Shown piece by piece: positions 5,923-28,977 of a stretch of DNA of 64,000 nt; within the stretch, counting starts at the first letter, position 1, and each line of letters opens with the position of its first letter. The DNA lies in contig NZ_JAMDLG010000001.1 of assembly GCF_023721715.1 (NCBI RefSeq), forward strand, positions 3,015,784 to 3,079,783. The letters are read 5' to 3'. The notes under the pieces were generated by a model. That model was not told the DNA's origin and did not search any database. It saw only the letters and a program-made list of their open reading frames with translations. A program made the position numbers and the translations under genes. The stretch comes from Parasegetibacter sp. NRK P23 (GTDB taxonomy: Bacteria; Bacteroidota; Bacteroidia; Chitinophagales; Chitinophagaceae).

Positions 5923-6828
5923 TCAGTTGAAACACACCTTCACCACGTTGTCGACCATCGTGTAGGTGAACATCATTTGTTTCGACATGTCATTCATCAG
6001 CTCAGGAAAGGTTACATTGGAAAACTGTGCCGTGTACGCATGGGCCTTCGCATCTTTTACCCCATTGGAGGCACAGAGTTCCAGCACAATACCATATTTG
6101 TCGCGGAACACTGCCGCTATATCATTAAAAGACGCATTGTTGAAATCGACCCGCAACGCCATCTGGTGCAACACAGCCATTCGTTCCGTTTCTCCCAGCT
6201 TGCTGAGCAGGCTGTCGTTGATCATGATCCTGTTCATCCTGGTAGGCTTCACTGAATGCTGCGCCATAGCAGAAGAATCGATTTTATTACCGAACCCGAT
6301 GGTGGTAACCATTGCTTTAACCACTGAGGCTTGCTTCGAAGCATTTGTTTTCGAGCGCTTTTCCGAGGGCATAGCTTCCGTCTTAATCTCCTTTACCACA
6401 TCCGACTTCATCAGCAATTCCGCTGTATCGGCAACCGGCGGTGCAATTTTCTCCTGTGTTACCGCTGCCAACGGATTGCGTTGCTCCGTCGTGTTTTCGC
6501 CGGAGTTTACATACACTGCCGTCAACACAATCACAGCTATTACCGCAGCCGCCGCAGCAACACGCGGCAGGAAACGGCGGATAGTGCTGCGCTGCTTCAA
6601 CTCCTTCATCACCGGTTTTTCCTGTGCCTGCACATGCTCGTCCCAATAGGTCTCGAGAAACTGATCGAATGCCGCTTTGTTCGCGGGATCCAGCAACCAA
6701 AACTCCACCGCTGCCGCTTCTTCTCCGGAACAGGTTTTCTCGAAATAACTTCTTAAGACTTCTTTTTTCACGTTGCTGAACGGGTGCTTGGTCAAAAATC
6801 TATATACTATACAATCTGGTGCCTGCAT
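5923..6828 (-). CDS. FecR-like anti-sigma factor lacking the FecR domain, with a DUF4974 C-terminus
   Basis: A single-pass membrane protein of 301 residues (282 if the GTG at 6769-6771, giving VKKEVLRSYFEK, is the start). The first ~75 residues are a cytoplasmic segment like the sigma-binding region of Bacteroidota anti-sigma factors. One transmembrane helix follows at about residues 90-110 (AAAAAVIAVIVLTAVYV). Then comes a low-complexity periplasmic linker of about 110 residues and a C-terminal DUF4974-type domain (VDFNNASFNDIAAVF to the end). The central FecR beta domain expected between helix and DUF4974 is not recognisable. It sits between the ECF sigma gene and SusC, so it probably holds the sigma factor at the membrane. 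How it would sense a signal without a FecR domain is unclear. Confidence 0.7.
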   Translation of the reverse strand: MQAPDCIVYRFLTKHPFSNVKKEVLRSYFEKTCSGEEAAAVEFWLLDPANKAAFDQFLETYWDEHVQAQEKPVMKELKQRSTIRRFLPRVAAAAAVIAVIVLTAVYVNSGENTTEQRNPLAAVTQEKIAPPVADTAELLMKSDVVKEIKTEAMPSEKRSKTNASKQASVVKAMVTTIGFGNKIDSSAMAQHSVKPTRMNRIMINDSLLSKLGETERMAVLHQMALRVDFNNASFNDIAAVFRDKYGIVLELCASNGVKDAKAHAYTAQFSNVTFPELMNDMSKQMMFTYTMVDNVVKVCFN

Positions 6829-6868
6829 GCACCTAAGGGGAGGAAAAAATATTTTCCGGCATGTGGGG

Positions 6869-7339
6869 TCAGCCGGAAAGTCCCAGTTTTTTCAGGAGTC
6901 CTTTCACTTGTTTGGTAGACTGGTTGATGTGGTTCTCCACCGTGCTTTTACTCAAATTGAGTTTTTCCGCGATCTCTTTGTTGGAGTACCCTTCCATCCG
7001 GGAAAGGGCAAAAACGGCTCTCCTTTTTTCGGGCAACTGGTTTAATATATCAAGCAGAACCTGGTAAAGTTCGTTGGTGTTCAACTCAGCTACGCGTTCT
7101 TCCACAGCGGGTAACGCCTCCTGGTATTTCCTGGCCACGATGCGTTTCTTCACCATATTCTGGATATCGTTCTTCGCGATGGTAATGAGGTAAGACTGCA
7201 GCGAAAAACTTTCGTTCAGCGTGGCGCGGTGCTCCCATAATTTGGTGAAAGTCTGCTGGATCACATCCCGGATGTCTTCCCTGTCGCCATTCAGTTTTAC
7301 AAGAAAAGAATACAATACCGCGCTGTACGCGTTGTACAC
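6869..7339 (-). CDS. ECF RNA polymerase sigma-70 factor, N-terminally interrupted
   Basis: The readable frame gives a 156-residue ECF sigma factor of the Bacteroidota sigma-70 family. Region 2 (DIRDVIQQTFTKLWEHRATL, then LQSYLITIAKNDI) binds the -10 element; region 4 (about residues 95-150, NKEIAEKLNLSKSTVENHI) is a helix-turn-helix. The frame as given must start at a GTG (codon 24 of the ancestral gene). Upstream in the same frame is MRLTNERELVAR, then TAA (7370-7372), then KEGDEKAFVD, the normal beginning of region 2. The natural start is therefore the ATG at 7406-7408 and the gene carries a nonsense codon. A GTG-started product would lack part of the first region-2 helix and may be inactive. 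Neighbours are the anti-sigma-like gene downstream and a divergent envelope cassette upstream. Confidence 0.8.
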   Translation of the reverse strand: MYNAYSAVLYSFLVKLNGDREDIRDVIQQTFTKLWEHRATLNESFSLQSYLITIAKNDIQNMVKKRIVARKYQEALPAVEERVAELNTNELYQVLLDILNQLPEKRRAVFALSRMEGYSNKEIAEKLNLSKSTVENHINQSTKQVKGLLKKLGLSG

Positions 7340-7369
7340 ATCAACGAAAGCCTTTTCATCCCCTTCTTT

Positions 7370-7408
7370 TTACCGGGCAACCAGTTCCCGCTCATTGGTT
7401 AATCGCAT
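7370..7408 (-). pseudogene. Severed 5' end of the ECF sigma gene, ending in an in-frame TAA
   Basis: Translating from the ATG at 7406-7408 gives MRLTNERELVAR followed by TAA at 7370-7372, and the same frame continues without shift into KEGDEKAFVDVYNAYS of the sigma factor. ECF sigma factors of this group usually have Leu at this point, so one base change (TTA to TAA) would explain it. A promoter-like TTG-N20-TAAGTTTG lies 5 bp upstream of the ATG, supporting this as the original start. A base-calling error cannot be excluded from the sequence alone. Confidence 0.75.
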
Positions 7409-7413
7409 AGTCA

Positions 7414-7444
7414 CAAACTTAGGAGTGAGCCCATAATTTTACAA
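7414..7444 (-). promoter_or_regulatory. Bacteroidota-type promoter of the sigma gene
   Basis: On the minus strand TTG (7442-7444) is followed after 20 bases by TAAGTTTG (7414-7421), matching the -33/-7 pattern (TTTG / TAnnTTTG) used by the primary sigma factor of Bacteroidota. The -7 element ends only 5 bases before the ATG at 7408, so the transcript would be almost leaderless. This is a motif match, not a mapped start. Confidence 0.6.
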
Positions 7445-7527
7445 GGTACAAAAATATCACGCTAAATTATTTCCGCCCTTACAGGCAAACCGCTGCCGCG
7501 CTTCGGCTCCCGGTTAAAAAAATATAC

Positions 7528-7544
7528 TTACATTTGAAATGTAA
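7528..7544 (+). promoter_or_regulatory. 17-bp palindrome overlapping the -7 element of the envelope cassette
   Basis: TTACATTTGAAATGTAA has perfect 8-base arms around a central G. Its left half contains TACATTTG (7529-7536), a full TAnnTTTG -7 match, 56 bases before the start at 7593. CGGTTA (7511-7516) and TAACCG (7542-7547) form an outer inverted repeat. A protein bound here would block the promoter, so it is a candidate operator for the five-gene cassette or the divergent sigma gene. The binding protein is unknown. Confidence 0.5.
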
Positions 7545-7592
7545 CCGATTTCATTCAGGTTGAAATCAGGACCATTAACCAATTGCCAACCC

Positions 7593-8306
7593 ATGCCAGC
7601 CAGAACGATTGCCTTTTCCTGCCTGCTTCTCGGCATTTATGGAAACGCTGCCGCGCAAATGGCGCACGCAGACAGTATCCGAAACGCCGCGATCCAACAT
7701 GCCACCACCGCCTACCTTCAGTACATTGGTAGCCAGGCGCCCTTGTACAGCGGCCCATTGTACAGGGATCAACGCGCCTCCATCAACAACGGTAGCCCGT
7801 TCTTCAAAACAGCACAACCTGTTGCCGGAACCATTCACTACAATGGTATCCTGTATGAAAATATCCCCCTGCTGTTTGATGTACTGGGAAAAAAAGTATT
7901 GACTCCCATGCCCGGAAATACTGAAACATGGATTGAAATAGACCTGAACAAGGTCAGTTTTTTTTCAATTCACGGAAGCCGGTTTTTGCGCATTCCACAA
8001 AGCAACGATTTCCTGGAAGTACTGCATGAAGGCGAAAAAAGCAGTGTTTACCGCATGTACAGGAAAGAAGTGAAAGAAGATCTTTCAGGACAATTCACGG
8101 AAAGAAATATCACGGAAAGCAAAACGGTATATGTATTGAAAGACGGGCTGCTGCACAAAATAACCAACAGGAACACCTTATTGAAAATTTATACCGACAA
8201 ACGAAAGGAACTGAGCAATTTTCTCCAACAGGAAAAGCCTGATATGAAAAAGGACCTCGCTCCCGCAGCGATACTGGCAGCGCAGTTTTACGACAACCAG
8301 CCTTGA
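7593..8306 (+). CDS. Secreted protein of unknown function, first gene of an envelope cassette
   Basis: A 237-residue protein; the ATG at 7593 is preferred over an upstream TTG at 7560 because it places a signal peptide at the N-terminus (MPARTIAFSCLLLGIYGNAA, cleavage near AAAQ). No enzyme motif or transmembrane segment is recognised in the mature part, which is mixed alpha/beta with many charged residues near the end. It begins 56 bp after a TAnnTTTG promoter element and ends 19 bp before the TonB-dependent receptor gene, so it should be cotranscribed with it. A periplasmic accessory role for the receptor is possible from position only. I do not recognise a named family. Confidence 0.7.
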   Translation: MPARTIAFSCLLLGIYGNAAAQMAHADSIRNAAIQHATTAYLQYIGSQAPLYSGPLYRDQRASINNGSPFFKTAQPVAGTIHYNGILYENIPLLFDVLGKKVLTPMPGNTETWIEIDLNKVSFFSIHGSRFLRIPQSNDFLEVLHEGEKSSVYRMYRKEVKEDLSGQFTERNITESKTVYVLKDGLLHKITNRNTLLKIYTDKRKELSNFLQQEKPDMKKDLAPAAILAAQFYDNQP

Positions 8307-8325
8307 AAACATTAAACCTTACAGC

Positions 8326-11073
8326 GTGAGCAATAAGTTCTTTCTACTTTTACTACTCTCCTTTGCCTGTTGCCGGAACAACGCGGTCATAGCGCAGGCG
8401 CAGCCAGCAAATTTACCGCCGATACAGTACCAATCGATCAGTTACGCAAACCTGCTGGATTCCCTTCAACAAAAATCCGGGCACAGGTTCTATTACAATA
8501 TCGCGCAACTGGATACCGCAAAAATCAGCTTTCATTTTACGGGCGGTTCTCTTCAGCAAGCGCTGGAACAACTGTTCAGGAACAACAATGTGGGTTTCTC
8601 CATAGACCAACAACAAAACGTCTTCATTACGAAAGGCCTGTCCATCACCACCAGGCTACCGGATGATTTCTACAGCGCGGAAACAAAGAAAAAAACGGTA
8701 CCCGTCGTGTATACACAAGCCGCCACACCTGAAAAAAATACAGAACCTTATACGGTGGGCGAGCCTGGAAACAGCACCGCAGACCGCTTTACCGTATCCG
8801 GGTATATCCGTGATATGAAAACGGGCGAACCTATTATAGGCGCGGCGTTGCTGGTGGAAAACGCGCGCATCAATACTGTTTCCGACCAGTCCGGTTATTT
8901 CAGCCTGATGGTACCGAAAGGCACCAACAAACTGAATGTACAAAGTATGGGCATGGAAGACGCGAACATGGAATTGCTGGTGCAGGGGAACGGGCTGCTC
9001 AACATCAACATGCAAACCAGGGTAGCCACTTTGAAGAACGTGGTCATCTCCGCGCAGAAGTCTACCAACCTCCGGAGTACGCAACTGGGCGTACAAAAAA
9101 TAGACATTAAAACCATCAAGCAGGTACCCGTTGTTTTTGGAGAAGCCGATGTATTGCGTGTACTGCTCACCACGCCAGGCGTTAAAACCGTGGGAGAAGC
9201 CAGTACCGGTCTTAACGTGCGCGGCGGTGCCGCCGATCAGAACCTGATCCTTTTCAACGAAAGCAATATTTATAACCCGTCGCATTTCTTTGGCATGTTC
9301 TCCGCATTCAATCCTGAAGTCGTGAAAGATGTGGAGCTCTTCAAAGGCAGCATTCCCGCACGTTATGGCGGAAGACTCTCCTCCGTGGTGCACATCAATG
9401 GCAGGGAAGGCAATAAAAAAGAATTCTCCGGATCTGCGGGCATTGGTCTACTCACCAGCAGAGCGTTAATTGAAGGTCCCGTTGTGAAAGACAAAGCCTC
9501 CTTTATCCTCGCCGGCCGCACTACTTACGCCGGCTGGCTGCTGAAAAGGCTTCCCAGCGAATACAGGAACAGCGAAGCCTCCTTCTATGATGTAAACGCC
9601 ATTTACCACCACGAACTCAACAAGAACAATACGCTCCACCTCAGTGCGTACACGAGTCGTGACCTATTCAACCTCAACAGCGATACGTTTTACCATTATA
9701 AGAACCGGAACATCTCGGTGAAATGGAAACATGTTTTCAACAGCCGTTTCCATACCGCGTTCACGGCCGGACACGACCAGTACGCGTACAATATTTACAG
9801 CGAACAAAACCCTGTTAACGCCTACGACCTTTCCTTCAGCATCACGCAATCTTATTTCAAGGCGCACTTCAATTACCTCCTCAACAACAAGCATACGTTG
9901 GAATTCGGACTGAACACCACCAGACACAGTCTGCACTCGGGCGATTACCAGCCATTGGGCAAACAATCACTAGTAACACCCGTGGTAATGCCCGCGGAAC
10001 AGGCGATGGAATCGGCGCTTTACCTCAGCGATCAATATAAGGTGAGCGCCAACTTCAGTGTGGAAGCGGGTCTGCGTTATTCCCTCTACAACTACCTCGG
10101 ACCGTTCACCGTCAACAATTACGCACCCGGTGTACCGCGTCGCGAAGACAATATTCTGGGTACCACCACTTATGGCAAAGGGAAAAACATTCAAACCTAC
10201 CAGGGTCCGGAGCTACGGATCGGCCTGCGGCAGATCATCACCCCCACGCTTTCCCTGAAAGCGGGATACAACAGCCTCCGGCAATACATTCACATGCTCT
10301 CCAATACAGCGGCCATGGCGCCTACCGACATCTGGAAACTGAGTGATCCCAACATCAAACCGCAGTTCGGAGACCAGGTTTCGTTCGGCATATACAAGAA
10401 CATGAAGAACAATACCATTGAACTTTCAGTGGAAGGCTATTATAAAAGAATCAAAAACTACCTCGATTTCAAAAGCGGCGCGGTACTTGTCCTGAACCCG
10501 CACGTGGAAACCGATGTGATCGGCACGCGTGGAAAAGCTTATGGCGCGGAGTTCCTCCTCAAAAAAACCACGGGTAAATTCAACGGATGGATCAGCTATA
10601 CTTACAGCCGCATCCTCCTGAAAGCCGACGACGCTTCTACGGGAGAATCCATCAACAACGGCAACTATTACCCGGCCAACTACGACAAACCGCACGACGC
10701 CACTTTCATCGGCAACTACCGCATATCGCACCGCTTCAGTGTTTCCTTCAACGCCACCTACAGCACCGGCAGACCCATTACGTTGCCCATCGGAAAATTC
10801 TTTTACGCCGACGGTATGCGCACTTTATATGGCGACAGGAACAGTCACCGCATCCCCGATTATTTCCGGACCGACCTCTCCCTGAACATAGAAGGAAACC
10901 ACAAAGTGAAACAGAAAACCCACAACTCCTGGACGATAGGCGCGTACAACCTCACGGGAAGAAGGAACCCTTATTCCGTTTATTATGTTTCCGACAACGG
11001 CGTAATCAACGGGTACAAACTGTCCATCTTCGGAAGCATTATACCGTTTGTGAATTTCAATATAAAGTTCTAA
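8326..11073 (+). CDS. TonB-dependent outer-membrane receptor with STN domain
   Basis: A 915-residue receptor; the start is a GTG at 8326, giving a signal peptide MSNKFFLLLLLSFACC. Domains in order: STN (about residues 35-105, SISYANLLDSLQQKSGHRFY), carboxypeptidase-regulatory-like (about 160-240, FTVSGYIRDMKTGEPIIGAA), plug (about 245-365, with LNVRGGAADQNLILFN and IPARYGGRLSSVV), then a beta-barrel ending IPFVNFNIKF. STN domains normally pass a signal to a FecR-type anti-sigma, but none is encoded in this cassette; the nearest is the divergent anti-sigma-like gene. No SusD follows; two DUF4249 lipoproteins do, a pairing common in Bacteroidota. The transported ligand is unknown. Confidence 0.9.
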   Translation: MSNKFFLLLLLSFACCRNNAVIAQAQPANLPPIQYQSISYANLLDSLQQKSGHRFYYNIAQLDTAKISFHFTGGSLQQALEQLFRNNNVGFSIDQQQNVFITKGLSITTRLPDDFYSAETKKKTVPVVYTQAATPEKNTEPYTVGEPGNSTADRFTVSGYIRDMKTGEPIIGAALLVENARINTVSDQSGYFSLMVPKGTNKLNVQSMGMEDANMELLVQGNGLLNINMQTRVATLKNVVISAQKSTNLRSTQLGVQKIDIKTIKQVPVVFGEADVLRVLLTTPGVKTVGEASTGLNVRGGAADQNLILFNESNIYNPSHFFGMFSAFNPEVVKDVELFKGSIPARYGGRLSSVVHINGREGNKKEFSGSAGIGLLTSRALIEGPVVKDKASFILAGRTTYAGWLLKRLPSEYRNSEASFYDVNAIYHHELNKNNTLHLSAYTSRDLFNLNSDTFYHYKNRNISVKWKHVFNSRFHTAFTAGHDQYAYNIYSEQNPVNAYDLSFSITQSYFKAHFNYLLNNKHTLEFGLNTTRHSLHSGDYQPLGKQSLVTPVVMPAEQAMESALYLSDQYKVSANFSVEAGLRYSLYNYLGPFTVNNYAPGVPRREDNILGTTTYGKGKNIQTYQGPELRIGLRQIITPTLSLKAGYNSLRQYIHMLSNTAAMAPTDIWKLSDPNIKPQFGDQVSFGIYKNMKNNTIELSVEGYYKRIKNYLDFKSGAVLVLNPHVETDVIGTRGKAYGAEFLLKKTTGKFNGWISYTYSRILLKADDASTGESINNGNYYPANYDKPHDATFIGNYRISHRFSVSFNATYSTGRPITLPIGKFFYADGMRTLYGDRNSHRIPDYFRTDLSLNIEGNHKVKQKTHNSWTIGAYNLTGRRNPYSVYYVSDNGVINGYKLSIFGSIIPFVNFNIKF

Positions 11074-11088
11074 AGCAACATCACACAG

Positions 11089-12279
11089 ATGAAAACATCT
11101 TCTCCACCATCCATGCCACTTCTTCAGGCGATACTGATCGTACTGTTGTGGTGCAGTTGCCGGGAACGTTATGACGAGAACTTCATCACCCCCGACACCG
11201 GCTTCCTGGTGGTGGAAGGCTTCATCAACAATGGCAATACGCCTACGGTAATCCGCCTCTCGCGTACCATAAAATTAACCGATGCCACCGCGGAAGAAAT
11301 GGAGGAAGGCGCCACCGTTTTTATAGAAAGCGACGACAACGCCCGCTTCCCTTTGCGGGAAACCGGTCCCGGCATTTACACCGGCGATCCCATCAACTTA
11401 ACCGCCGGGAAAAAATACCGGTTGCTGATACAGGCAAAAGGAAAAGAATACATTTCAGCTTATTCATCCATACGCACAACGCCGGCAATCGACAGCATCT
11501 CCTGGCAACGCGAAAGCCAGGGTGTCCGACTCTACGTACACACGCAGGATCCTTCCGGTGAAGCGCGGCATTTTCAATGGAAGTACGAGGACACCTGGGA
11601 AACCAATGCCCCCTTTTCCTCCGAACTCAGGTACGTCTATGACAATGCCGGGAAAGTGGAATCGGTTTGGTTCCATCCCAATGGACAAGCTGATGCCCCG
11701 CCACGGCGGTGCTGGCAACAAGCCATTTCGCGCAGCCTGCTCATCGGCACCACCGAGCACCTCGACCAGAGTGTTGTTTTTCTTCCACTGTATGCCATCA
11801 GCAACGGTTCCCCGAAACTCAGCGTAATGTACAGTACGCTTGTTAAGCAATACAGCATCAGTAAAGCCGCTTATAACTTCCTGCTCCGAATGAAAAAAAA
11901 TTCAGAACAACTCGGCTCCATATTCGATGCGCAGCCATCTGAACTCATCGGCAACATCCGTTGTTCAAGCGATCCCTCCGAACCGGTGATCGGCTTTGTG
12001 GAAGTAACACAGGAGCAGACAAAACGCATCTTCCTGACCGCAGCCGACGTGGGAGGCTGGCAGTATGTGTTCCCGGGATGTGAACCAGCTATAGTGGACA
12101 ATATCGGCGACAGCATTCTGAAAAACAGCATCAACATGGGATTGGTTCCAGGCGCACCCTATCAATCCGTTCCTGAACCACCGCCCATTAAGATCATCAC
12201 TTTCACCGCTTACCGGCCAGCTTGTGTAGACTGTACGCTTTCCGGAGGATCAACATTGAAACCGATATTCTGGCCCTAA
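11089..12279 (+). CDS. DUF4249 family lipoprotein (first of two paralogues)
   Basis: A 396-residue protein with a lipoprotein-type N-terminus (LIVLLWCSC, modified Cys near residue 24) followed by RERYDENFITPDTGFLVVEG, the hallmark start of DUF4249 proteins. The rest is a predicted beta-rich domain ending in ACVDCTLSGGSTLKPIFWP. It lies 15 bp after the receptor gene and 11 bp before a close paralogue that shares the start (CRERYD), the middle (KKNSEQLGSIFDAQPSE) and the end (NGGSN/GGSTLKPxFWP). DUF4249 proteins occur next to TonB-dependent receptors and may act as surface partners, as SusD does; that role is inferred. No catalytic motif is seen. Confidence 0.85.
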   Translation: MKTSSPPSMPLLQAILIVLLWCSCRERYDENFITPDTGFLVVEGFINNGNTPTVIRLSRTIKLTDATAEEMEEGATVFIESDDNARFPLRETGPGIYTGDPINLTAGKKYRLLIQAKGKEYISAYSSIRTTPAIDSISWQRESQGVRLYVHTQDPSGEARHFQWKYEDTWETNAPFSSELRYVYDNAGKVESVWFHPNGQADAPPRRCWQQAISRSLLIGTTEHLDQSVVFLPLYAISNGSPKLSVMYSTLVKQYSISKAAYNFLLRMKKNSEQLGSIFDAQPSELIGNIRCSSDPSEPVIGFVEVTQEQTKRIFLTAADVGGWQYVFPGCEPAIVDNIGDSILKNSINMGLVPGAPYQSVPEPPPIKIITFTAYRPACVDCTLSGGSTLKPIFWP

Positions 12280-12290
12280 AAATAAAACGC

Positions 12291-13466
12291 ATGCACCCAT
12301 CTTTTTTTCTCATATACCGCTTGCTCACGCTACTATTCCTGTTCTCCGTAACCAGTTGCCGAGAACGCTACGACGCCATGGTTCTCACCCCTGAAACCGG
12401 TTACCTTGTAGTGGAAGGCTTCATCAACAACGGAACAGAACCCACCGAAATAAGGCTTTCCAGAACCGTACAACTCGATGGCCCCTCATCGCCGCTGCCG
12501 GAAACAGGCGCCACCGTGTTTGTGGAAAGCAATACCGCCAACCGATTTCCATTGCAGGAAACAGCACCCGGCATTTACCGTTCCGCGCACCTGGCACTAA
12601 ACACCAACGAACAATACCGGATCCATATTTACGCGAAAGAAAAAGAATATGTTTCCGCCTACTCCGGTATCCAGACCACTCCCGGCATCGACAGCATTTC
12701 GTGGGTACAAAATGCCGCCGGGGTTCAACTGCATGTACATGCTAACGCTCCTGACAATCAGTCCAGGTACTACCAATGGAAGTTCGATGAAACCTGGGAA
12801 ACCAACCCGCCTTTTGTGAGCAACCTGGTGTACGGTTACGATGCGCAACAAAGAATTACAGGTGTGGAGTACCGTTATCCGAACCGCATGAACGAACCTT
12901 CCTTTGTAAGATGCTGGACGGAAAAGCAATCATCGGGTATACTGATAGGCTCCACCGAAAAACTTGAAAAAGATGTGGTGTACCTGCCCATTCATTTTAT
13001 TGAAGCCAACTCAGTAAAAATAAGCGTACAGTACAGCATTTTACTGAAACAATACAAACTGAGCAAGGCGGCCTATACCTTCTTATTGCAGATGAAAAAA
13101 AACACCGAGCAACTGGGTTCCATCTTCGATGCACAACCTTCTGAAATGCCCGGCAACATGAGCTGCCTTACCCACCCCGGAGAAGCAGTGATCGGTTTCG
13201 TGGAAGTAACCCAGGAAAAAACAAGCCGGCTTTTCATCCACAACAACGAACTCCGGAACTGGAACTATAAAACCGGGTGTGAAGTCACCATCATTCAGAA
13301 CAACCCCGACAGTATTACCAAATATGGATTGCAGGTAATGCCCGCCACCGTATTCATGGATGATCCCAATACCGGCGCCATTACCCACTTTACAGCGGCA
13401 CCCTCATTTTGCATAGACTGCCGGCAGAACGGAGGCTCCAATATTAAACCGGTTTTCTGGCCATAA
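12291..13466 (+). CDS. DUF4249 family lipoprotein (second of two paralogues)
   Basis: A 391-residue paralogue of the preceding gene. The ATG at 12291 is chosen over an upstream GTG at 12222, which would overlap the preceding gene by 58 bp and hide the signal peptide; from 12291 the N-terminus is hydrophobic with lipobox SVTSC and then RERYDAMVLTPETG. Shared blocks with its neighbour (VVEGFINNG, IRLSRT, TEQLGSIFDAQPSE, KPVFWP at the end) show a tandem duplication followed by divergence. It ends 12 bp before the MG2-type gene. Two DUF4249 copies on one receptor may give two ligand specificities; this is inference. Confidence 0.85.
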   Translation: MHPSFFLIYRLLTLLFLFSVTSCRERYDAMVLTPETGYLVVEGFINNGTEPTEIRLSRTVQLDGPSSPLPETGATVFVESNTANRFPLQETAPGIYRSAHLALNTNEQYRIHIYAKEKEYVSAYSGIQTTPGIDSISWVQNAAGVQLHVHANAPDNQSRYYQWKFDETWETNPPFVSNLVYGYDAQQRITGVEYRYPNRMNEPSFVRCWTEKQSSGILIGSTEKLEKDVVYLPIHFIEANSVKISVQYSILLKQYKLSKAAYTFLLQMKKNTEQLGSIFDAQPSEMPGNMSCLTHPGEAVIGFVEVTQEKTSRLFIHNNELRNWNYKTGCEVTIIQNNPDSITKYGLQVMPATVFMDDPNTGAITHFTAAPSFCIDCRQNGGSNIKPVFWP

Positions 13467-13478
13467 AATTCCTTTCAA

Positions 13479-15851
13479 ATGAAATTACCCAACAATATAC
13501 GTTCCTCTTCTTTCCTTCCCTGCTTCGTGTTGTGCCTGGCTGTTTGTGGCCCAAAGCTTCATGCGCAGGATACCGGAATAAACCCCGCGGAAGCGCTTAC
13601 CCGTTTCAGCGCACAATCGATCAGGGAGAAATTGTATGTGCATACCGATAAGGATTATTATATGCCGGGGGAAATCATCTGGTTCAAAATATATTGCGCC
13701 GATGCTTTCCTGCACAAGCCGCTCCCCCTCAGTAAAGTAGCTTACGTTGAAATACTGGACAGCGCCAATAAAGCCGTCCGGCAGGAAAAAATAGCCTTAC
13801 ATAACGCCACGGGCAACGGCTCCATCTACCTTTCCCAACAGGTAGCATCGGGCCACTACAAACTCCGGGCCTATACCCGGTGGATGCAGAATGATGATCC
13901 GCACTGGTTCTTCGAGAAACAGATCGCGGTAATGAACCTGAACCACCTGCCGCCGGTAAAGCCCGTTACGGAAAGCAACAAAACACAGATCACCTTCTTC
14001 CCGGAGGGTGGCGACCTCGTGCAGGGAATGGAGAACAGGATCGCCTTCAAAGCCAGCAATGCTACAGGAAAAGGCGTTGCGTTCAAAGGTTATTTACTGG
14101 ATGGACAAGATACGTTGCTGCATTTTGAACCCGAACACCTGGGCATGGGCACATTCCCGCTTACACCAGAAGCAGGACACCGTTACCGCGCCTTCATTGT
14201 ACCGGAGAACGGCCTTCCTTTTGAAGCAATACTTCCGGAGACGCGCTCCGTTGGAACCTCGCTTGCGGTGCAACCCACGCCGGATGGTTTCAGGATACAT
14301 ATTCATACGAACGAACCAGGCAATGAAGCAATGAGATTACTCGTGCACACGCGGGGCATCACCCGACTTCATACCACACTTCCACTTACAGAAGGGAAAG
14401 CGCAATTCCAACTTCCCGCATCCGTTCCGGGAGAAGGCATCTCCGTAGTAACGATCTTTAACGGGAAAGGACAACCCGTTTGCGAACGGCTGATATTCAG
14501 TTATCCCGAAAAAGAACTGGACATCAACCTTTCAGTTTCAAAACCGGTTTACCATACCCGTGAAGCCGTGGAACTGCAGTTGAGTACCGCATCAACAGAC
14601 AGCGCGGAGTTCTCCTTATCGGTGTACAGTATAGATTCGCTCCAGCAACCGGGATCAGGGAATATCCTTTCTTACCTGTTATTGTCCTCCGATATCAGGG
14701 GGCATATAGAAAATCCGGAGACTTATTTTGCTGAAAGTAATCCAGACAAAGCCCGGCAAATGGACCTGCTGCTGCGTACGCAGGGCTGGAGAAGGTTCAA
14801 CTGGAAAACTATAACCTCGCAAAAAACACCCATTTACCGTTATGCGCCGGAATTGCAGGGACACCTCATTACCGGAACCGTATTTAGCGGAGAAAAGCCC
14901 GCATCCAATACCACCGTATTCCTTTCGGCCCCTTCTTCCCTCACCCTGTTCAGGCCCGCCACCAGTGATGTGAACGGGAACTTCAGGGCCGATGTCCCGA
15001 ACCTGTTTGGCAGCCATCACCTGATCGCACAAACGGAATCCTCTTCTTATACCATCAGCATCCACGATCCGTTCAGCCGGCAATTCTCCACTTCCACGCT
15101 GCCCACCATGTACAGACCGCTGGAAAATCCGGGCACGCTGCTGCAGCAGAACATCGGGATGCAGGTCAGGAACATCTATTCGGGAGACCAACTGAATGTT
15201 CACCATTTGCCCCATTCCGGAGACACCATTCCGTTTTACAACCGCGCCGACCAGCAATACCAACTGGATAAATACACCCGTTTCACTACCATGGAAGAAG
15301 TGCTGCGCGAATATGTGAACCTGGTGGATGTGCGGTTTAAAAACAAAGAAGTAAACCTGTTCGTGATCGATCCATTGAGAAAGGCCTACTTCGAAAACAA
15401 ACCACTGAACCTGCTGGACGGCGTACCCGTATTCAATTTTACAAAGTTCCTGGCGTTCGATCCCATGAAAATATACAGCGTGGATGTGGTGGCAAAACAA
15501 TACGTGCTGGGCAATACCAGTTTTCCGGGCATCCTCAACTGGAGGACCTACGCGCCTTCAGCCGCCTACTATGAGGCAACGCCCAACATGCTCCAGGTCG
15601 ACTATGAGGGACTGCAACTGACCAGGGAATTTTACAGCCCGGCATATGATTCACCAGATAAAAAAGACAGTCGTATACCCGATTTCAGAAACGTGCTGCA
15701 TTGGGCGCCGGCCGTTAAAGCCGGGAAAAACACTGATGCGAAACTCCGTTTTTATACATCTGATCTTCCCGGCAAATATGTGGTGGTGGCGGAGGGACTT
15801 TCCACCGGAGGAACAGCCGGAAGTGGGATGTTGTTCTTTGAGGTGAAGTAA
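13479..15851 (+). CDS. Large secreted protein with macroglobulin MG2-like domain, last gene of the cassette
   Basis: A 790-residue exported protein (signal peptide ending near LHAQ). Residues about 45-140 look like an alpha-2-macroglobulin MG2 domain: KLYVHTDKDYYMPGEIIWFK and GHYKLRAYTRWMQN are typical. A middle region contains a carboxypeptidase-regulatory-like beta domain (around GHLITGTVFSGEKPASNTTV). The C-terminal part (MEEVLREYVNLVDVRF, then LLDGVPVFNFTKF) resembles the plug-like end seen in related Bacteroidota proteins. No thioester or bait motif is visible, so it is not a complete macroglobulin. It closes the five-gene plus-strand cassette, 12 bp after the second DUF4249 gene. Its role is unknown; envelope scaffold or receptor partner are guesses from context. 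Confidence 0.75.
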   Translation: MKLPNNIRSSSFLPCFVLCLAVCGPKLHAQDTGINPAEALTRFSAQSIREKLYVHTDKDYYMPGEIIWFKIYCADAFLHKPLPLSKVAYVEILDSANKAVRQEKIALHNATGNGSIYLSQQVASGHYKLRAYTRWMQNDDPHWFFEKQIAVMNLNHLPPVKPVTESNKTQITFFPEGGDLVQGMENRIAFKASNATGKGVAFKGYLLDGQDTLLHFEPEHLGMGTFPLTPEAGHRYRAFIVPENGLPFEAILPETRSVGTSLAVQPTPDGFRIHIHTNEPGNEAMRLLVHTRGITRLHTTLPLTEGKAQFQLPASVPGEGISVVTIFNGKGQPVCERLIFSYPEKELDINLSVSKPVYHTREAVELQLSTASTDSAEFSLSVYSIDSLQQPGSGNILSYLLLSSDIRGHIENPETYFAESNPDKARQMDLLLRTQGWRRFNWKTITSQKTPIYRYAPELQGHLITGTVFSGEKPASNTTVFLSAPSSLTLFRPATSDVNGNFRADVPNLFGSHHLIAQTESSSYTISIHDPFSRQFSTSTLPTMYRPLENPGTLLQQNIGMQVRNIYSGDQLNVHHLPHSGDTIPFYNRADQQYQLDKYTRFTTMEEVLREYVNLVDVRFKNKEVNLFVIDPLRKAYFENKPLNLLDGVPVFNFTKFLAFDPMKIYSVDVVAKQYVLGNTSFPGILNWRTYAPSAAYYEATPNMLQVDYEGLQLTREFYSPAYDSPDKKDSRIPDFRNVLHWAPAVKAGKNTDAKLRFYTSDLPGKYVVVAEGLSTGGTAGSGMLFFEVK

Positions 15852-15886
15852 TAAAAGCATCAGGAAATCATAAGCAAAAAAATAAG

Positions 15887-15898
15887 GCAACCGATTGC
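15887..15898 (+). promoter_or_regulatory. LacI-type operator upstream of the first lacI gene
   Basis: GCAACCGATTGC is the same 12-base element, in the opposite orientation, as the ones before the GH115 operon (27995) and the GH67 operon (31267). It has GCAA/TTGC arms and the central CG usual for LacI-family operators. It lies 177 bp upstream of the lacI start at 16075, so it may serve autoregulation together with the weaker site at 16062. Confidence 0.6.
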
Positions 15899-15920
15899 GT
15901 AAATTTCACGGAAAAAGTTT

Positions 15921-15930
15921 GCAAATTTGC
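15921..15930. promoter_or_regulatory. 10-bp perfect palindrome in the lacI upstream region
   Basis: GCAAATTTGC is self-complementary and keeps the GCAA/TTGC half-sites of the xylan operator but with an AT centre and 10 rather than 12 bases. It lies 22 bp after the operator at 15887. It could be a degenerate second site or chance; the context is AT-rich. Confidence 0.3.
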
Positions 15931-16054
15931 TTTTAAAACATTTCTTTTAGGAAAATAAACGATGCGGGCCAGCACCTTCCCTTCTTAGGAAATACTGATA
16001 GTTAAAGGATTTCATGACCTCAGCGATACTCAGCCGGAAATGAATGGCCGTGAA

Positions 16055-16073
16055 CATGTTTGCAATTGATTAC
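16055..16073 (+). promoter_or_regulatory. Putative -7 element merged with a degenerate LacI operator before lacI
   Basis: CATGTTTG (16055-16062) is close to TAnnTTTG and runs straight into GCAATTGATTAC (16062-16073), which matches 9 of 12 bases of GCAATCGGTTGC and abuts the start codon at 16075. The same order, -7 element then operator, is seen before GH115 and GH67. It suggests weak autorepression. Confidence 0.4.
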
Positions 16074-16074
16074 A

Positions 16075-17139
16075 ATGAATATCAAGAAAGACATCACCAT
16101 TTATGACCTGGCGCAGAAACTGAACCTCTCGACCTCCACGATCAGCCGTGCGCTGAACGACAACCCGATCATCAACAAAAGAACACGAAAAACCGTACAG
16201 GAAACCGCCCGTGAACTGGGTTACCGGCACAACACCTTCGCCAGCAACCTGCGCAAGCAGAAAACGAATACCATCGGCGTAATCGTCCATGAGCTGAACA
16301 GCAATTTCATCACCTCCGTGCTCGCAGGTATTGAAAAAGTGACCACCGCCGCCGGTTACGACCTTATCATCGCGCACTCTTCTGAAAACCATGAAAAAGA
16401 AGTGGCGAACGCCCTCAATTTCTTCCACAAAAGAGTAGATGGCGTACTCGCATCCCTCTCCTTCACCACACACAACCTGGACCATTTCACCCCTTTCGGG
16501 GAAAGAGGCGTTCCGGTAGTATTCTTCGACCGCGTAGAGGAGAACCACGACAGTACTCATGTGATCATCGACAACCATAAGTGTGGCTACCAGGCCACCA
16601 AACACCTGATAGAACAGGGCTGCAAAAGAATTGTACTGGTAACCGCCAGCCTGCAGCGCAACGTATATGAACAGCGACACAGCGGGTACATGGACGCCTT
16701 GCGAGACAACGGCATTCCCTACAACAAACACCTCGTACTGATCAAGGACCTCAGTGAACAATGCGGCATAGACGCCGCCATGGAGATCATGCATATGGAC
16801 CCGATGCCCGACGGCGCTTTCATCACGAACGACTTCACCGCAGCCGTTTGTATGCACACGCTGAAAGAGAACGGGTTAAACATCCCGGGCGACATTGCCG
16901 TGGTTGGCTTCAACAACGACGCCATCGGCAAGATCGTTCACCCCAAACTGAGTACGATCAACTACCCCGGAACGGATATGGGAGAAGTGGCGGCCAGGAA
17001 CCTGATCGGGTACCTGAATGGCGCATCGGAACTGCATCAGACGAAAACAATCATTGTACGGTCCGAACTGATCGTACGGGAATCTTCTCTTCGGGCAGAA
17101 AGCCCTGTGGCCGTACCGGCAACAACAGGCGTACTTTAA
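16075..17139 (+). CDS. LacI-family transcriptional regulator (xylan cluster)
   Basis: A 354-residue repressor-type regulator. Residues about 5-60 are the LacI helix-turn-helix and hinge (TIYDLAQKLNLSTSTISRAL), followed by a periplasmic-binding-protein-like ligand domain with NTIGVIVHELNSNF, DGVLASLSF, GVPVVFFDR, TNDFTA and VVGFNNDAIG. The ATG at 16075 is used because an earlier TTG adds only four residues. It faces the esterase end of the xylan operon convergently (13-bp gap) and resembles the second LacI regulator at 31305. The shared operator GCAAYCGRTTGC lies upstream. It probably senses a xylan-derived sugar or uronate and controls both enzyme operons; which of the two LacI proteins binds is not decided by the sequence. 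Confidence 0.9.
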   Translation: MNIKKDITIYDLAQKLNLSTSTISRALNDNPIINKRTRKTVQETARELGYRHNTFASNLRKQKTNTIGVIVHELNSNFITSVLAGIEKVTTAAGYDLIIAHSSENHEKEVANALNFFHKRVDGVLASLSFTTHNLDHFTPFGERGVPVVFFDRVEENHDSTHVIIDNHKCGYQATKHLIEQGCKRIVLVTASLQRNVYEQRHSGYMDALRDNGIPYNKHLVLIKDLSEQCGIDAAMEIMHMDPMPDGAFITNDFTAAVCMHTLKENGLNIPGDIAVVGFNNDAIGKIVHPKLSTINYPGTDMGEVAARNLIGYLNGASELHQTKTIIVRSELIVRESSLRAESPVAVPATTGVL

Positions 17140-17152
17140 AAACTTTGCTTTT

Positions 17153-19087
17153 CTACTTATCGGTCCGGAACGGAGCTGCGGGCAGGCCTTCTTTATTTAT
17201 GAGCGAAGGGTTTACGGGATTATCGGCCCAGGCGTAACGCACATACTTCGGTTCTTTTATCTCAGGACTCCAAACCACTACTTCTTCACCTTCAATCCGG
17301 GCTTTGGCCCAAACGAATTTTTTATCTGCCCCCGCGATCGCGAATTCAGCGGGCGCTTCTCCATCGCTGGTGGTTAACCCACTACCGGTATGGTTAAAAC
17401 CAATCCTGATTTTATCTCCTTCTATACGGGCCGAACGGAACATGGGACCGGAATACACCAGTTCTTTTCCGTAGGCGATTTTTTCGGCGGCAAGCGCGAG
17501 TCTTTCACCTACATCCTTTTTATTATCGGGATGAATATCGTTCCATTCACCCAGGTCGATGGCCACGGCCATGCCCGTATTGGGCAATTCCAACGCATTG
17601 GTCTGCGCTTCGCGCATCGATGCCCAGTTGCTCTCCGAAGGCAGGTAATTGTACTCCATGTACCCGGGCAACTGCACATAGAGGAACGGCAATGTGGTAT
17701 CGTTCCTTTGTACGCGCCAGTCTTTTATAATGGCTTTCTGCCACTTTGCATACATGGCGGGCTGACCACTGTCGCTCTCGCCCTGGTACCAGCAAATCCC
17801 CTTGATGGTATAAGGAACGGTGGGCGCCACCATGGCATTGTACAAGGCCGAAGGCTGGTTCTGCGCATTCACGCCTCCGCCGCCGAATCCGCCTTGTGAG
17901 GGTCTGAAAACCGCGCCTACCTTATATTGCCAATAACCATACAATGGAATGGTATCGGTGCCTGAAAAAATACAGTAAGGCTTATCCGGCACAAATCCGC
18001 CTTTCCCGCCATTATTGGTCACACGTACCACAAACAGGTTCCTGCCTTCCTTTAAAACACCAGCGGGCACCGAATACCTTCGCTGCGGATATTGGTAACC
18101 GGTACTTCCTACACGGGTCCCGTTAATGTACAATTCGTCGGCATCCACAATTCTTCCCAGGAACACTTTCGCGGCCTTGCCCGTCATTGACGCGGGTATA
18201 TCAATTTCCTTCCTGTACCATACGATCCCATTGAGGTCGCGCACCCCCTGGTCTTCCCAATAACCCGGCACGGCAATGTTGCGCCAGCCTTTTGGTGCAT
18301 ACGCGGGCTCGAACCATTTCAGGCTTCCTGTCATACCCGCATCTTCGGGTGGCAGCGTATTATTTCTGTTTTCAGGTACACGACGGCGTGACCTGTTCAA
18401 TGCGGCCGTATCCCTGTTTCGGGCGATTGCCTCCACTGCGGAAGGAAATTCTTTTAATCCTTCTTCACTTATCCATGCCTGTATCGGCGTTCCGCCTACG
18501 CTGGCATTAATAATACCTACTGGTATCTGATGTGCTTCATGTAATTTTTTCGCGAAGAAAAAAGCCACTGCTGAAAATGGCCGTACCGCCTCTCCCACAG
18601 CAGGCACCCAATATCCTTCGGGTAAATCTTTTTCTGGTTGTCGCATATTCGTCAGCGTGGGTATCCAGAACTGCCGGATCATGGGATAATTGGCTGTAGC
18701 GATGTCCTGCGCATAAGTTACATCGTGGATGTTGAGTTGATGTACCATATTGGATTGTCCGCTGCACAACCATACATCACCGAAAAGAATTTCCTTCAAC
18801 CGGATGGTATTCTTTCCACGGATCTCCATATTATAAGGACCACCGGCTTTTACGGGCGGCAATGTAACGGACCAGTTTCCACCCTTGTCCGCACGGGCGC
18901 GGTATTGCTTTCCATTAAAACGAACGGTTACGTTTTCATTCGCGGCGGCCCAGCCCCAGATGTTTACGGGCTTATCGCGCTGAAGGATCATGCTATCCCG
19001 TACAAGGGCTGGTAATTTCACCTGCGCATACGCTATACCCTGGAGCAAACAAAGCGCCGTTATATAGGCAAACAATCTTTTCATCAC
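17153..19087 (-). CDS. Sialate O-acetylesterase-type SGNH esterase, probable acetylxylan esterase
   Basis: A 644-residue exported esterase (signal peptide MMKRLFAYITALCLLQGIAYA). The nucleophile Ser lies in WLCSGQSNM (about residue 116) and a second conserved block is ICWYQGESDSG, both diagnostic of the sialate O-acetylesterase (SASA) family. An inserted galactose-binding-like beta domain lies around residues 260-370 (GYWEDQGVRDLNGIVWYRKE). Database names refer to sialic acid, but in this operon, with xylanase and glucuronidases, removal of acetyl groups from xylan is the more likely task. It starts 3 bp after the GH3 stop and is the last gene of the operon. The SGNH family is certain; substrate is inferred. 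Confidence 0.85.
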   Translation of the reverse strand: MMKRLFAYITALCLLQGIAYAQVKLPALVRDSMILQRDKPVNIWGWAAANENVTVRFNGKQYRARADKGGNWSVTLPPVKAGGPYNMEIRGKNTIRLKEILFGDVWLCSGQSNMVHQLNIHDVTYAQDIATANYPMIRQFWIPTLTNMRQPEKDLPEGYWVPAVGEAVRPFSAVAFFFAKKLHEAHQIPVGIINASVGGTPIQAWISEEGLKEFPSAVEAIARNRDTAALNRSRRRVPENRNNTLPPEDAGMTGSLKWFEPAYAPKGWRNIAVPGYWEDQGVRDLNGIVWYRKEIDIPASMTGKAAKVFLGRIVDADELYINGTRVGSTGYQYPQRRYSVPAGVLKEGRNLFVVRVTNNGGKGGFVPDKPYCIFSGTDTIPLYGYWQYKVGAVFRPSQGGFGGGGVNAQNQPSALYNAMVAPTVPYTIKGICWYQGESDSGQPAMYAKWQKAIIKDWRVQRNDTTLPFLYVQLPGYMEYNYLPSESNWASMREAQTNALELPNTGMAVAIDLGEWNDIHPDNKKDVGERLALAAEKIAYGKELVYSGPMFRSARIEGDKIRIGFNHTGSGLTTSDGEAPAEFAIAGADKKFVWAKARIEGEEVVVWSPEIKEPKYVRYAWADNPVNPSLINKEGLPAAPFRTDK

Positions 19088-19090
19088 CTT

Positions 19091-21706: not shown

Positions 21707-21730
21707 GATGGCAAAATTTTAGCAACACCT

Positions 21731-22750: not shown

Positions 22751-22776
22751 GGTAAATTCGTTTAAAGTTATAGCGA

Positions 22777-24243: not shown

Positions 24244-24265
24244 AAATAGCGTATATCGGTATGTC

Positions 24266-25390: not shown

Positions 25391-25394
25391 CTGA

Positions 25395-27941: not shown

Positions 27942-27994
27942 CTGCAAGCAATGCAAGGTTATTTTAAAATGGATCGAAACTTAAATACAAATTT

Positions 27995-28006
27995 GCAATC
28001 GGTTGC
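27995..28006 (-). promoter_or_regulatory. LacI-type operator of the GH115 xylan operon
   Basis: GCAATCGGTTGC (plus strand) is identical to the site before GH67 and lies 53 bases upstream of the GH115 ATG. On the transcribed strand it follows CTTTA directly, within the sequence GAACTTTAGCAACCGATTGC, so a bound repressor would cover the start of transcription. A weaker match (8 of 12, with intact CAATCGG) lies at 28038-28049, 43 bp away centre to centre, about four helical turns, and could be an auxiliary site. Confidence 0.65.
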
Positions 28007-28223
28007 TAAAGTTCGTAAAAAAAGGCTTCCTACAAAATCAATCGGCTAAATTATTCTGTAAAAAGCCATACTAAATTTAACAAATTCAGACAACTAGTTG
28101 ATTTTCAATTATTTAAAAAACAGAGCAATCCTATTGTCCTGCATAAATCCATTTCCAACCACCCTTTGTTGTTGAGGTATTAAAATTGCTTCATCCTGTT
28201 ATAAAAATGAAACCGCTTACATT

Positions 28224-28958: not shown

Positions 28959-28977
28959 ACACTTAGCTGGTTTAGGG

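What the first reader, a model, noticed from the sequence alone, without database searches (positions are those of the whole stretch)
7593..15851. Five-gene envelope cassette: secreted unknown, STN receptor, two DUF4249 lipoproteins, MG2-type protein
All five genes are on one strand with gaps of 11-19 bp and one promoter, and every product is exported. There is no SusD and no enzyme. The set looks like a self-contained outer-membrane uptake or surface system in which DUF4249 proteins take the SusD place and an incomplete macroglobulin-like protein ends the unit. The substrate and the roles of three of the five proteins are unknown.
Basis: partly seen in the sequence, partly recalled or inferred. 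Interest (0 to 1): 0.55.

Follow-up and report, generated by a model that had tools for sequence, protein, structure and literature searches.

The report
Conserved four-part outer-membrane transport cassette
A block of genes for an outer-membrane gate, its surface lid and two secreted helper proteins travels together through many environmental Bacteroidota, which points to an undescribed uptake machine, one helper of which joins a macroglobulin-type fold to a leftover gate plug.

Summary
In detail: five exported proteins, one strand, gaps of 19, 15, 11 and 12 bp. The gene set is kept in relatives. All 38 loci first fetched around gene 1 carry receptor, DUF4249 lipoprotein(s) and MG-type protein, 37 in this order; of 19 more distant loci 12 do and 7 are lone gene-1 relatives. 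A scan from the MG protein (best 80 of 572 candidates) found the set in Chitinophagales, Sphingobacteriales and Cytophagales. Flanking genes are not conserved. The core is four families; the two DUF4249 genes are a tandem pair (1 to 6 copies at other loci).

New here: (1) cassette lids end in a CxxC...F/Y-W tail, found in 1 of 22 other DUF4249 proteins in part only. (2) The MG protein is a macroglobulin fold without thioester motif, with a CarboxypepD-like domain and a degenerate TonB-receptor plug at about the bait/anaphylatoxin position; stand-alone relatives have a clear plug. (3) Gene 1 is a confident model without a Pfam, NCBIfam or clear PDB match.

Best reading: a lid-assisted TonB-dependent importer with two soluble periplasmic partners. 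Direction, substrate and the roles of gene 1 and MG are inferred. A conserved ECF/FecR link and a single promoter are not supported.

The parts
7593..8306 (+). Gene 1: secreted protein of unknown family (237 aa), signal-peptidase-I type signal peptide; AlphaFold2 model of ten strands followed by helices
   Evidence: no Pfam or NCBIfam match; model mean pLDDT 92.3; no PDB match with Foldseek E<=0.001
8326..11073 (+). TonB-dependent receptor with N-terminal STN-like, CarbopepD_reg_2 and plug domains
   Evidence: most conserved member, mean pairwise identity 0.561 over 69 distinct loci
8521..8631 (+). STN-like domain of the receptor (residues 66-102)
   Evidence: 21.5 bits, below cut-off 28.4; 18 of 33 receptors match at E<=0.01
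8794..9048 (+). CarbopepD_reg_2 domain of the receptor (residues 157-241)
   Evidence: 53.9 bits; 33 of 33 receptors at E<=0.01
9094..9375 (+). Plug domain of the receptor (residues 257-350)
   Evidence: 34.5 bits; 33 of 33 receptors at E<=0.01
11089..12279 (+). DUF4249 lipoprotein a, proposed surface lid
   Evidence: 161 bits; sister of lipoprotein b in a tree of lids from 114 loci
12223..12234 (+). CxxC of the cassette-type C-terminal tail, lipoprotein a (Cys 379 and 382)
12291..13466 (+). DUF4249 lipoprotein b, proposed surface lid
   Evidence: 164 bits; 51% identical to a; start codon
13410..13421 (+). CxxC of the cassette-type C-terminal tail, lipoprotein b
13479..15851 (+). MG protein: macroglobulin-fold soluble protein with CarboxypepD-like and degenerate plug-like inserts, no thioester motif (790 aa)
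13629..13895 (+). MG2 domain (residues 51-139)
   Evidence: 29.0 bits, cut-off 32.8; 33 of 36 cassette members at E<=0.01
14868..15035 (+). CarboxypepD_reg-like domain of the MG protein (residues 464-519), weak
   Evidence: E 0.005, below cut-off; 3 of 36 members at E<=0.01
15252..15548 (+). Degenerate TonB plug-like domain (about residues 592-690)
   Evidence: No Plug match in the window protein; 5 of 36 members at E<=0.01, best 0.003; aligned through stand-alone relatives with clear plugs
15675..15848 (+). C-terminal half macroglobulin domain (residues 733-790), proposed counterpart of the first half of PF00207
   Evidence: model aligned up to residue 790; PF00207 positions 1-52 after the plug in relative L233, E 0.028

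Best explanation
A lid-assisted, TonB-dependent outer-membrane importer with two dedicated soluble periplasmic partners. SHOWN by sequence: a receptor with plug; one or more DUF4249 lipoproteins; two soluble-type signal-peptidase-I proteins (gene 1, MG protein); the four families kept together as one unit across several orders. INFERRED: the DUF4249 lipoproteins sit on the cell surface over the barrel like SusD and trap the substrate; TonB energy opens the receptor plug; tandem lids widen or tune what one receptor accepts. INFERRED and least certain: in the periplasm the MG protein, a string of macroglobulin domains with a CarboxypepD-plug module resembling the receptor's own N-terminal part, docks under the receptor as gate, handover partner or assembly chaperone, with gene 1 as adaptor. 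Because the receptor varies least and no conserved enzyme or carrier gene flanks the set, the substrate is probably one widely shared small polymer or chelate rather than a species-specific glycan (inference).
For: Gene 1 loci: 38 of 38 relatives' loci have receptor, DUF4249 and MG, 37 in the window's order; 12 of 19 more distant loci do too. MG-first scan: receptor in 76, DUF4249 in 75, gene 1 in 70 of 80 named loci. Median gaps 1, 3.5 and 17 bp; flanks unconserved. In 395 phylum genomes the 12 with gene 1 above 180 bits are the same 12 with MG above 900 bits, cut-offs set after seeing the gap in scores. Tandem duplicated cassettes: L238, L241. DUF4249-receptor pairing is general and genetically linked in BT2172/BT2173. 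Lid tail: CxxC in 159 of 160 (155 distinct tails) plus 12 of 12 from short-MG loci, against 1 of 22 outside the cassette. Plug module. Divergences of the four families correlate, r 0.60-0.77, which shared descent alone could give.
Against: No transport, binding or expression data. Two Hymenobacter loci (L117, L131) have receptor and MG but no DUF4249 in the upstream run; in L146 and L150 the only labelled one lies on the other strand, at contig edges. The STN-like domain suggests signalling, yet no sigma/anti-sigma gene travels with the set. The plug-like domain has decayed: 0 of 75 cassette MG proteins are hit by my SusC and receptor profiles, and Pfam Plug finds 5 of 36. Stand-alone MG relatives without a modelled receptor beside them exist, as do lone distant gene-1 relatives (7 of 19 loci), so neither family needs this receptor in all cases. 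Foldseek TM-scores of the MG model are low (0.12-0.31 by query length in the rows shown). Receptor conservation is a weak pointer to one substrate.
Confidence: 0.55

Rival explanations
1. Sensing or envelope-signalling system: the receptor's STN-like domain and the MG protein relay surface binding to the cell; transport is secondary.
For: STN-like domain in the receptor (18 of 33 at E<=0.01; FecR_C, a related match, in 10 of 33); in the window an ECF sigma factor (6869-7339) and a short FecR_C-type protein (5923-6828) are transcribed away from the cassette. PMC7782687 (passages) says SusC STN domains act in anti-sigma signalling.
Against: A gene of my ECF profile is the immediate upstream neighbour in 0 of 38 relatives. 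The window's ECF/FecR pair is followed by a SusC gene and a SusD-like gene, its more likely target.
Confidence: 0.17
2. Biogenesis or export rather than import: the receptor-lid-MG set assembles or processes a surface protein, the MG protein acting as a periplasmic holder of unfolded or translocating protein.
For: Macroglobulin folds bind proteins (general knowledge); the MG model aligns to bacterial and animal macroglobulins (Z up to 20.0); no conserved enzyme or carrier gene flanks the set; the receptor is strongly conserved.
Against: No thioester motif (0 of 75). Receptor and DUF4249 alone are a widespread pair, genetically tied in a gut species, which reads as transport.
Confidence: 0.15
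3. Ordinary DUF4249-receptor pair whose two extra genes are unrelated passengers.
For: DUF4249 occurs in 250 of 395 phylum genomes, far more than gene 1 (70 of 395); this genome also holds a receptor-DUF4249 pair without the other genes (L054).
Against: 38 of 38 and 70 of 80 co-occurrence, very short gaps and unconserved flanks, matching genome sets, cassette-type lid tail.
Confidence: 0.03
4. Anti-protease or defence role: the MG protein traps foreign proteases like other alpha-2-macroglobulins.
For: Fold match to alpha-2-macroglobulins and complement; 2 of 36 members touch the bait-region model, best E 0.0014.
Against: Thioester motif in 0 of 75 and no thioester-domain match among the families listed for 36 members; two conventional long macroglobulins are already present in this genome.
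Confidence: 0.04

Closest known systems
DUF4249-TonB-dependent transporter pairs (BT2172/BT2173; 'lid' preprint of Price and colleagues, cited in PMC11003636)
   Same: Receptor next to a DUF4249 protein; disrupting either has similar consequences in Bacteroides thetaiotaomicron according to PMC11003636 (passages, outline and part of the reference list seen).
   Different: This cassette adds gene 1, the MG protein and a CxxC...F/Y-W tail on the lid; of 22 DUF4249 loci outside the cassette 0 have gene 1 and 1 an MG relative within 5.5 kb. The lid preprint itself was not held; its title is all I saw of it.
SusC/SusD uptake systems
   Same: TonB-dependent barrel with CarboxypepD N-terminal extension and plug plus a lipoprotein partner; passages of PMC7782687 describe the pedal-bin lid.
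   Different: No SusD; receptor scores 49.6 bits against a cut-off of 368.25 for the SusC/RagA subfamily. Here STN precedes the CarboxypepD domain, whereas PMC7782687 states the reverse order for SusCs; another receptor in this window (41638-45309) has the same order as here.
Alpha-2-macroglobulin / complement family
   Same: MG2 domain and overall fold; model aligned within residues 32-790 to Salmonella A2M (Z 20.0, 315 residues, rmsd 5.4) and C3 (Z 18.9, 427 residues, rmsd 5.8).
   Different: No thioester motif; the matched part of C3 ends near residue 826; CarboxypepD-like and plug-like insert in the middle.
Stand-alone MG-plug proteins of Bacteroidota (L233, L234, L235, L237; L171 in this genome)
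   Same: Alignment of the cassette MG with six such proteins runs over 745 columns (hhalign E 1e-132).
   Different: Four of five scanned have a Pfam Plug above cut-off, 43-61 bits. In the six stretches fetched no receptor of the kinds I modelled adjoins the MG gene; a 15-bit partial hit lies at the far edge of L237.

Membership tests
DUF4249 lid-receptor pair | PF14054 protein | tested here: met
   161 and 164 bits, cut-off 28.5
DUF4249 lid-receptor pair | Adjacent TonB-dependent receptor | tested here: met
   Receptor 15 bp upstream; Plug and CarbopepD_reg_2 over cut-off
DUF4249 lid-receptor pair | Lipoprotein physically covers the barrel | not testable with these tools
   No complex prediction available
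SusC/SusD system | SusD-family partner | tested here: not met
   No SusD match among the five proteins
SusC/SusD system | Receptor in the SusC/RagA subfamily TIGR04056 | tested here: not met
   49.6 bits against cut-off 368.25
SusC/SusD system | CarboxypepD N-terminal extension before the plug | tested here: met
Alpha-2-macroglobulin family | MG2 domain | tested here: inconclusive
   29.0 bits, cut-off 32.8 in the window protein; 33 of 36 members at E<=0.01
Alpha-2-macroglobulin family | Macroglobulin fold | tested here: met
   Foldseek best E 1.1e-16 (TM-scores low) and Z up to 20.0 on a model of mean pLDDT 90.2
Alpha-2-macroglobulin family | Thioester motif | tested here: not met
   C[GLA]EQ in 0 of 75; some bacterial family members also lack it (recalled)
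Alpha-2-macroglobulin family | Bait-region and A2M domains over cut-off | tested here: not met
   Neither is listed for the window protein at E<=0.1; bait-region model in 2 of 36 at E<=0.01
Fec-type trans-envelope signalling | STN domain on the receptor | tested here: inconclusive
   21.5 bits, cut-off 28.4; 18 of 33 at E<=0.01
Fec-type trans-envelope signalling | Conserved linked sigma/anti-sigma pair | tested here: not met
   ECF as immediate upstream neighbour in the window but in 0 of 38 relatives
TonB-receptor plug (MG protein) | Pfam Plug match | tested here: inconclusive
   Window protein none; 5 of 36 members at E<=0.01; four of five stand-alone relatives over cut-off

The most novel reading that the evidence does not exclude
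The MG protein is a detached second plug: a macroglobulin arm in the periplasm that carries a CarboxypepD-plug module derived from a TonB-dependent receptor and inserts it into, or swaps it with, the plug of its partner receptor, so that opening of the barrel, lid closure and substrate handover are coupled. This would be a new way of gating an outer-membrane transporter, with gene 1 as its adaptor and tandem lids as exchangeable substrate readers.
Probability: 0.13. Interest if true: 0.85.

Novelty: new variant of a known kind. Interest (0 to 1): 0.58.

Why it matters
Bacteroidota live largely by pulling large molecules through TonB-dependent gates, and most mechanism is known from SusC/SusD (general knowledge). 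This cassette is a separate, widely shared design with a different lid, two unexplored soluble partners and a macroglobulin joined to a plug. It gives clear handles (gene 1, lid tail, MG-plug) to find it in any genome, and makes a question testable: what do periplasmic partners of such gates do? The literature searches run here listed no paper that, from what I saw, describes the cassette; they cover an open-licence PubMed Central library without bioRxiv.

Tried and rejected
Promoter: 14 consensus sites in 6500-17500 against 11.2 +/- 3.3 in shuffles, 17 terminator-like sites against 14.4 +/- 4.6. TAnnTTTG (recalled motif) lies 64 bp before gene 1 in the window, but 9 of 102 upstream regions have it against 14.2 (maximum 27) in mononucleotide shuffles and 18 on the reverse strand. 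No regulatory motif is claimed; start codons were guessed by length there.

Gene 1 fold: Foldseek against PDB gave no match with E<=0.001; the second look gave at most Z 3.8, on 46 residues of the N-terminal helix. This does not show that the fold is new. Enzyme role: columns at 85% or more hold Gly, Tyr, Phe, Leu, plus Asn53, Asp96, Lys158, Met1 and the signal-site Gln; no Ser, His or Cys.

Direct profile comparison of the MG protein with the two full macroglobulin types of this clade found the MG2 domain (E 1.3e-5 and 1.1e-4) and little else. Direct comparison of its plug-like part with the receptor plug: E 9e-4 over 35 columns, probability 23%. I therefore used the stand-alone relatives as a bridge. 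That the insert stands where others have the bait or anaphylatoxin part rests on matched ranges (three C3 beta-chain rows stop at model residue 452-453, whole-chain rows reach 790) and on two weak hits in two different relatives: end of the bait model at 349-395 in L234 (E 0.036) and start of PF00207 at 771-821 in L233 (E 0.028). Residue-level superposition was not available.

Rows dropped or counted with care: for I took 38 gene-1 matches (36 genomes), mainly the best ones, and left out several at contig ends. In one search, 8 of the 10 loci without gene 1 end at a contig edge and 2 (L104, L113) exceed my six-gene look-back; one search lists a gene-1 ORF at the start of L104. The five loci without DUF4249 upstream are L117, L131, L139 (it follows MG), L146 and L150. 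The two locus sets overlap: 74 single-copy loci gave 69 distinct ones, so 106 cassettes include repeats. In some searches only the best few candidates per genome were scored (6 and 2). My ORF caller is mechanical and can split or mis-start genes. Of the 22 non-cassette DUF4249 loci, 20 were picked by hand from the listed part and two come from this genome; one search chose a wrong-strand ORF in L247 and counted 16 of 22 with an adjoining receptor, and read the matched frame instead and counted 19 of 22 within 450 bp; the tail counts stayed 1 and 0.

DUF4249 was not modelled. In some searches lipoprotein b was given from 12294, one codon after its start.
Full report
WHAT IS THERE. The genome is probably of the Chitinophagaceae: genomes that the search calls its family include contigs of the same length as named ones of that group (G069:C67 and Limnovirga soli, 370351 bases; G238:C25 and Terrimonas, 73349 bases; inference). 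Five genes on the + strand, 7593-15851, are separated by 19, 15, 11 and 12 bp. Pfam names DUF4249 for two, a TonB-dependent receptor with CarboxypepD and plug domains and a sub-threshold STN for one, a sub-threshold MG2 for one, and nothing for the first. NCBIfam has no family over cut-off for any of the five. Divergently transcribed upstream lie an ECF sigma factor and a short FecR_C-type protein (match below cut-off), followed by a SusC and a SusD-like gene. Downstream, 208 bp after the last gene, a LacI/CcpA-like regulator (NCBIfam matches below their cut-offs) stands at the edge of a xylan-type locus (GH3, GH115, GH67).

IS IT A UNIT? A family-level search found gene 1 in 96 of 294 genomes and 47 of 101 genera. 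I fetched surroundings of 38 such matches. All 38 carry receptor, DUF4249 and MG protein on the same strand; 37 have the window's order and L070 swaps the last two. Starting from the MG protein instead, a scan of named genomes confirmed 572 stretches and kept the best 80; upstream on the same strand the receptor was found in 76, DUF4249 in 75, gene 1 in 70. Eight of the ten without gene 1 are cut by a contig edge and two exceed my look-back. Two Hymenobacter loci (L117, L131) lack DUF4249 in the run, L139 has it after MG, and L146 and L150 have a hit only on the other strand. Genera include Niabella, Mucilaginibacter, Pedobacter, Hymenobacter, Pontibacter and Dyadobacter; taxonomy places Niabella, Mucilaginibacter and Hymenobacter in Chitinophagales, Sphingobacteriales and Cytophagales. 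Over both sets, 106 complete cassettes (some loci occur in both sets) have median gaps of 1 (gene 1 to receptor), 3.5 (receptor to lid), 4 (lid to lid) and 17 bp (lid to MG). The neighbours look random: the upstream gene is on the same strand in 55 of 102, the downstream in 53 of 103; the commonest protein family at the four flanking positions reaches 7 of 102, 6 of 94, 5 of 103 and 4 of 103, and the largest family over all four positions touches 13 loci. In a sample of 395 phylum genomes (gene 1 in 70 at E<=0.001), the 12 genomes with gene 1 above 180 bits are the 12 with MG above 900 bits; these cut-offs were set after seeing the gap in scores. Of 19 further, more distant loci chosen by gene 1, 12 are full cassettes (gene 1 at 104-301 bits; L186 with MG before the lid) and 7 (42-86 bits) lack the cassette; L181 and L190 among these have SusC-type genes in the stretch. 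Cassettes are duplicated in tandem (L238; L241 with one gene 1 for two copies). The unit therefore has clear borders and four conserved families.

THE LIDS. Across 114 loci, 85 have one DUF4249 gene, 19 two, 6 three, 2 four, 1 five and 1 six; in 12 of 29 multi-copy loci the copies are each other's closest relatives, the window's pair among them (51% identical). Duplication has thus happened repeatedly. Five cysteines are invariant in 28 of 28 aligned lids: the lipid-type Cys plus four more. The last two form a CxxC in a C-terminal tail beyond the end of the Pfam match. CxxC is in 159 of 160 cassette lids (155 distinct tails; the exception is L094) and in 12 of 12 lids of the short-MG loci, against 1 of 22 DUF4249 proteins outside the cassette; an ending with FW (133) or YW (24) is in 157 of 160 against 0 of 22. 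The one exception outside, L250, ends in a similar CxxC...WW tail but has no gene 1 or MG nearby. Of these 22, 19 have a receptor on the same strand within 450 bp, 0 have gene 1 near and 1 (L260) an MG relative. DUF4249-receptor pairing is thus general, and the cassette is a marked branch of it. [quoted passage not shown] its source, a preprint on lids, was not held.

THE MG PROTEIN. An AlphaFold2 model from 75 sequences has mean pLDDT 90.2. Foldseek's best PDB matches are insect TEP1 and bacterial and human macroglobulins and complement (best E 1.1e-16; 238 matches at E<=0.001; TM-scores by query length 0.12-0.31 in the rows shown, as whole-chain superposition of a multi-domain protein is poor). 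The second aligner gives Z 20.0 to Salmonella A2M (315 residues, rmsd 5.4) and Z 18.9 to C3 (427 residues, rmsd 5.8), spanning model residues 32-790; three chains that hold only the C3 beta part match up to 452-453. So both ends of the protein match macroglobulin on either side of a middle insert of roughly 453-700 (inference from ranges). That insert contains a weak CarboxypepD-like domain and a plug-like domain. Evidence for the plug: Pfam Plug in 5 of 36 members, not in the window's own; E 9e-4 against the partner receptor's plug over 35 columns; and, best, stand-alone relatives: an alignment of six of them matches the cassette MG over 745 columns (E 1e-132), five of the six are hit by my SusC profile over its plug stretch (E 9e-6 to 4e-27), and Pfam Plug scores 43-61 bits, cut-off 23.9, in four of five scanned. 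Against: 0 of 75 cassette MG proteins are hit by the SusC or receptor profile. I conclude that the cassette MG carries a degenerate plug. In the short MG proteins of L184-L188 the middle Ig-like part (about profile 175-345) is missing, while the MG2 domain and the part from CarboxypepD to the C-terminus are matched in all five, so the insert and the C-terminal half belong to the conserved core. The thioester motif is in 0 of 75. The genome also has two conventional long macroglobulins.

GENE 1. Model mean pLDDT 92.3, ten strands and C-terminal helices, no convincing PDB relative. It is the least conserved member (mean pairwise identity 0.296), with no conserved Ser, His or Cys.

THE RECEPTOR. 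The most conserved member: mean pairwise identity 0.561 over 69 distinct loci, against 0.418 for MG and 0.392 for the lid. STN is matched in 18 of 33, CarbopepD_reg_2 and Plug in 33 of 33 at E<=0.01. No PDB chain matches its profile at E<=1e-10.

WHERE THE PARTS SIT. Gene 1, receptor and MG show the Gln that follows the cut in most Bacteroidetes signal-peptidase-I substrates (rule: PMC5837995 and PMC10653852, start of abstracts in the listing): invariant or at 90% or more in the alignments, and 107 of 109, 106 of 107 and 119 of 119 by a loose pattern without control. The lids have the lipoprotein-type Cys (28 of 28 aligned; 157 of 160 by pattern). I infer two soluble periplasmic proteins, one barrel and surface lipoproteins; surface exposure of the lids and periplasmic residence of the other two were not tested.

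HOW IT MAY WORK. The best-supported model is import: lid over the barrel, TonB-driven plug opening, and a periplasmic pair (MG, gene 1) under the receptor. The first half follows from the families; the second is inference from co-conservation, location and the shared CarboxypepD-plug module. Signalling and export or assembly remain open rivals. The window's ECF/FecR pair is unlikely to belong, since 0 of 38 relatives have an ECF gene as upstream neighbour.

NOVELTY. The kind, a TonB-dependent receptor with a lipoprotein lid, is known. The four-family unit, the lid tail and the macroglobulin-plug combination were not found in the searches made (open-licence PubMed Central, no bioRxiv). I rate it a new variant of a known kind, with a low-probability but striking reading that the MG protein supplies a second, detached plug.

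Noticed in passing
window 5923-6828 (-): Anti-sigma-like protein with only a weak FecR_C match (17.8 bits, cut-off 24.4) and no FecR middle domain listed, beside an ECF sigma factor (6869-7339).
   Followed up: no
window 16060-31131: LacI/CcpA-like regulator followed by a xylan/glucuronoxylan-type locus: sialate-esterase/GH2-like protein, GH3, MFS, GH115, GH67.
   Followed up: no
window 52240-54084 (-): Protein with a type IX secretion C-terminal sorting domain (Por_Secre_tail, 28.2 bits, cut-off 27).
   Followed up: no
L171:6389-8776 (-), this genome: Stand-alone MG-plug relative (795 aa) with no receptor of the kinds modelled in the 15 kb fetched.
   Followed up: partly
L260 and L250: Possible intermediates: receptor, DUF4249 and a 489-aa MG relative without gene 1 (L260); DUF4249 with a CxxC...WW tail and a receptor about 1.1 kb away but no gene 1 or MG (L250).
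   Followed up: no
L113, L104, L099, L106: Tandem arrays of four to six DUF4249 genes behind one receptor.
   Followed up: partly
L175, L179-L181, L183, L189, L190: Distant relatives of gene 1 without the cassette's lid or MG in the stretch; L181 and L190 have SusC-type genes there.
   Followed up: no
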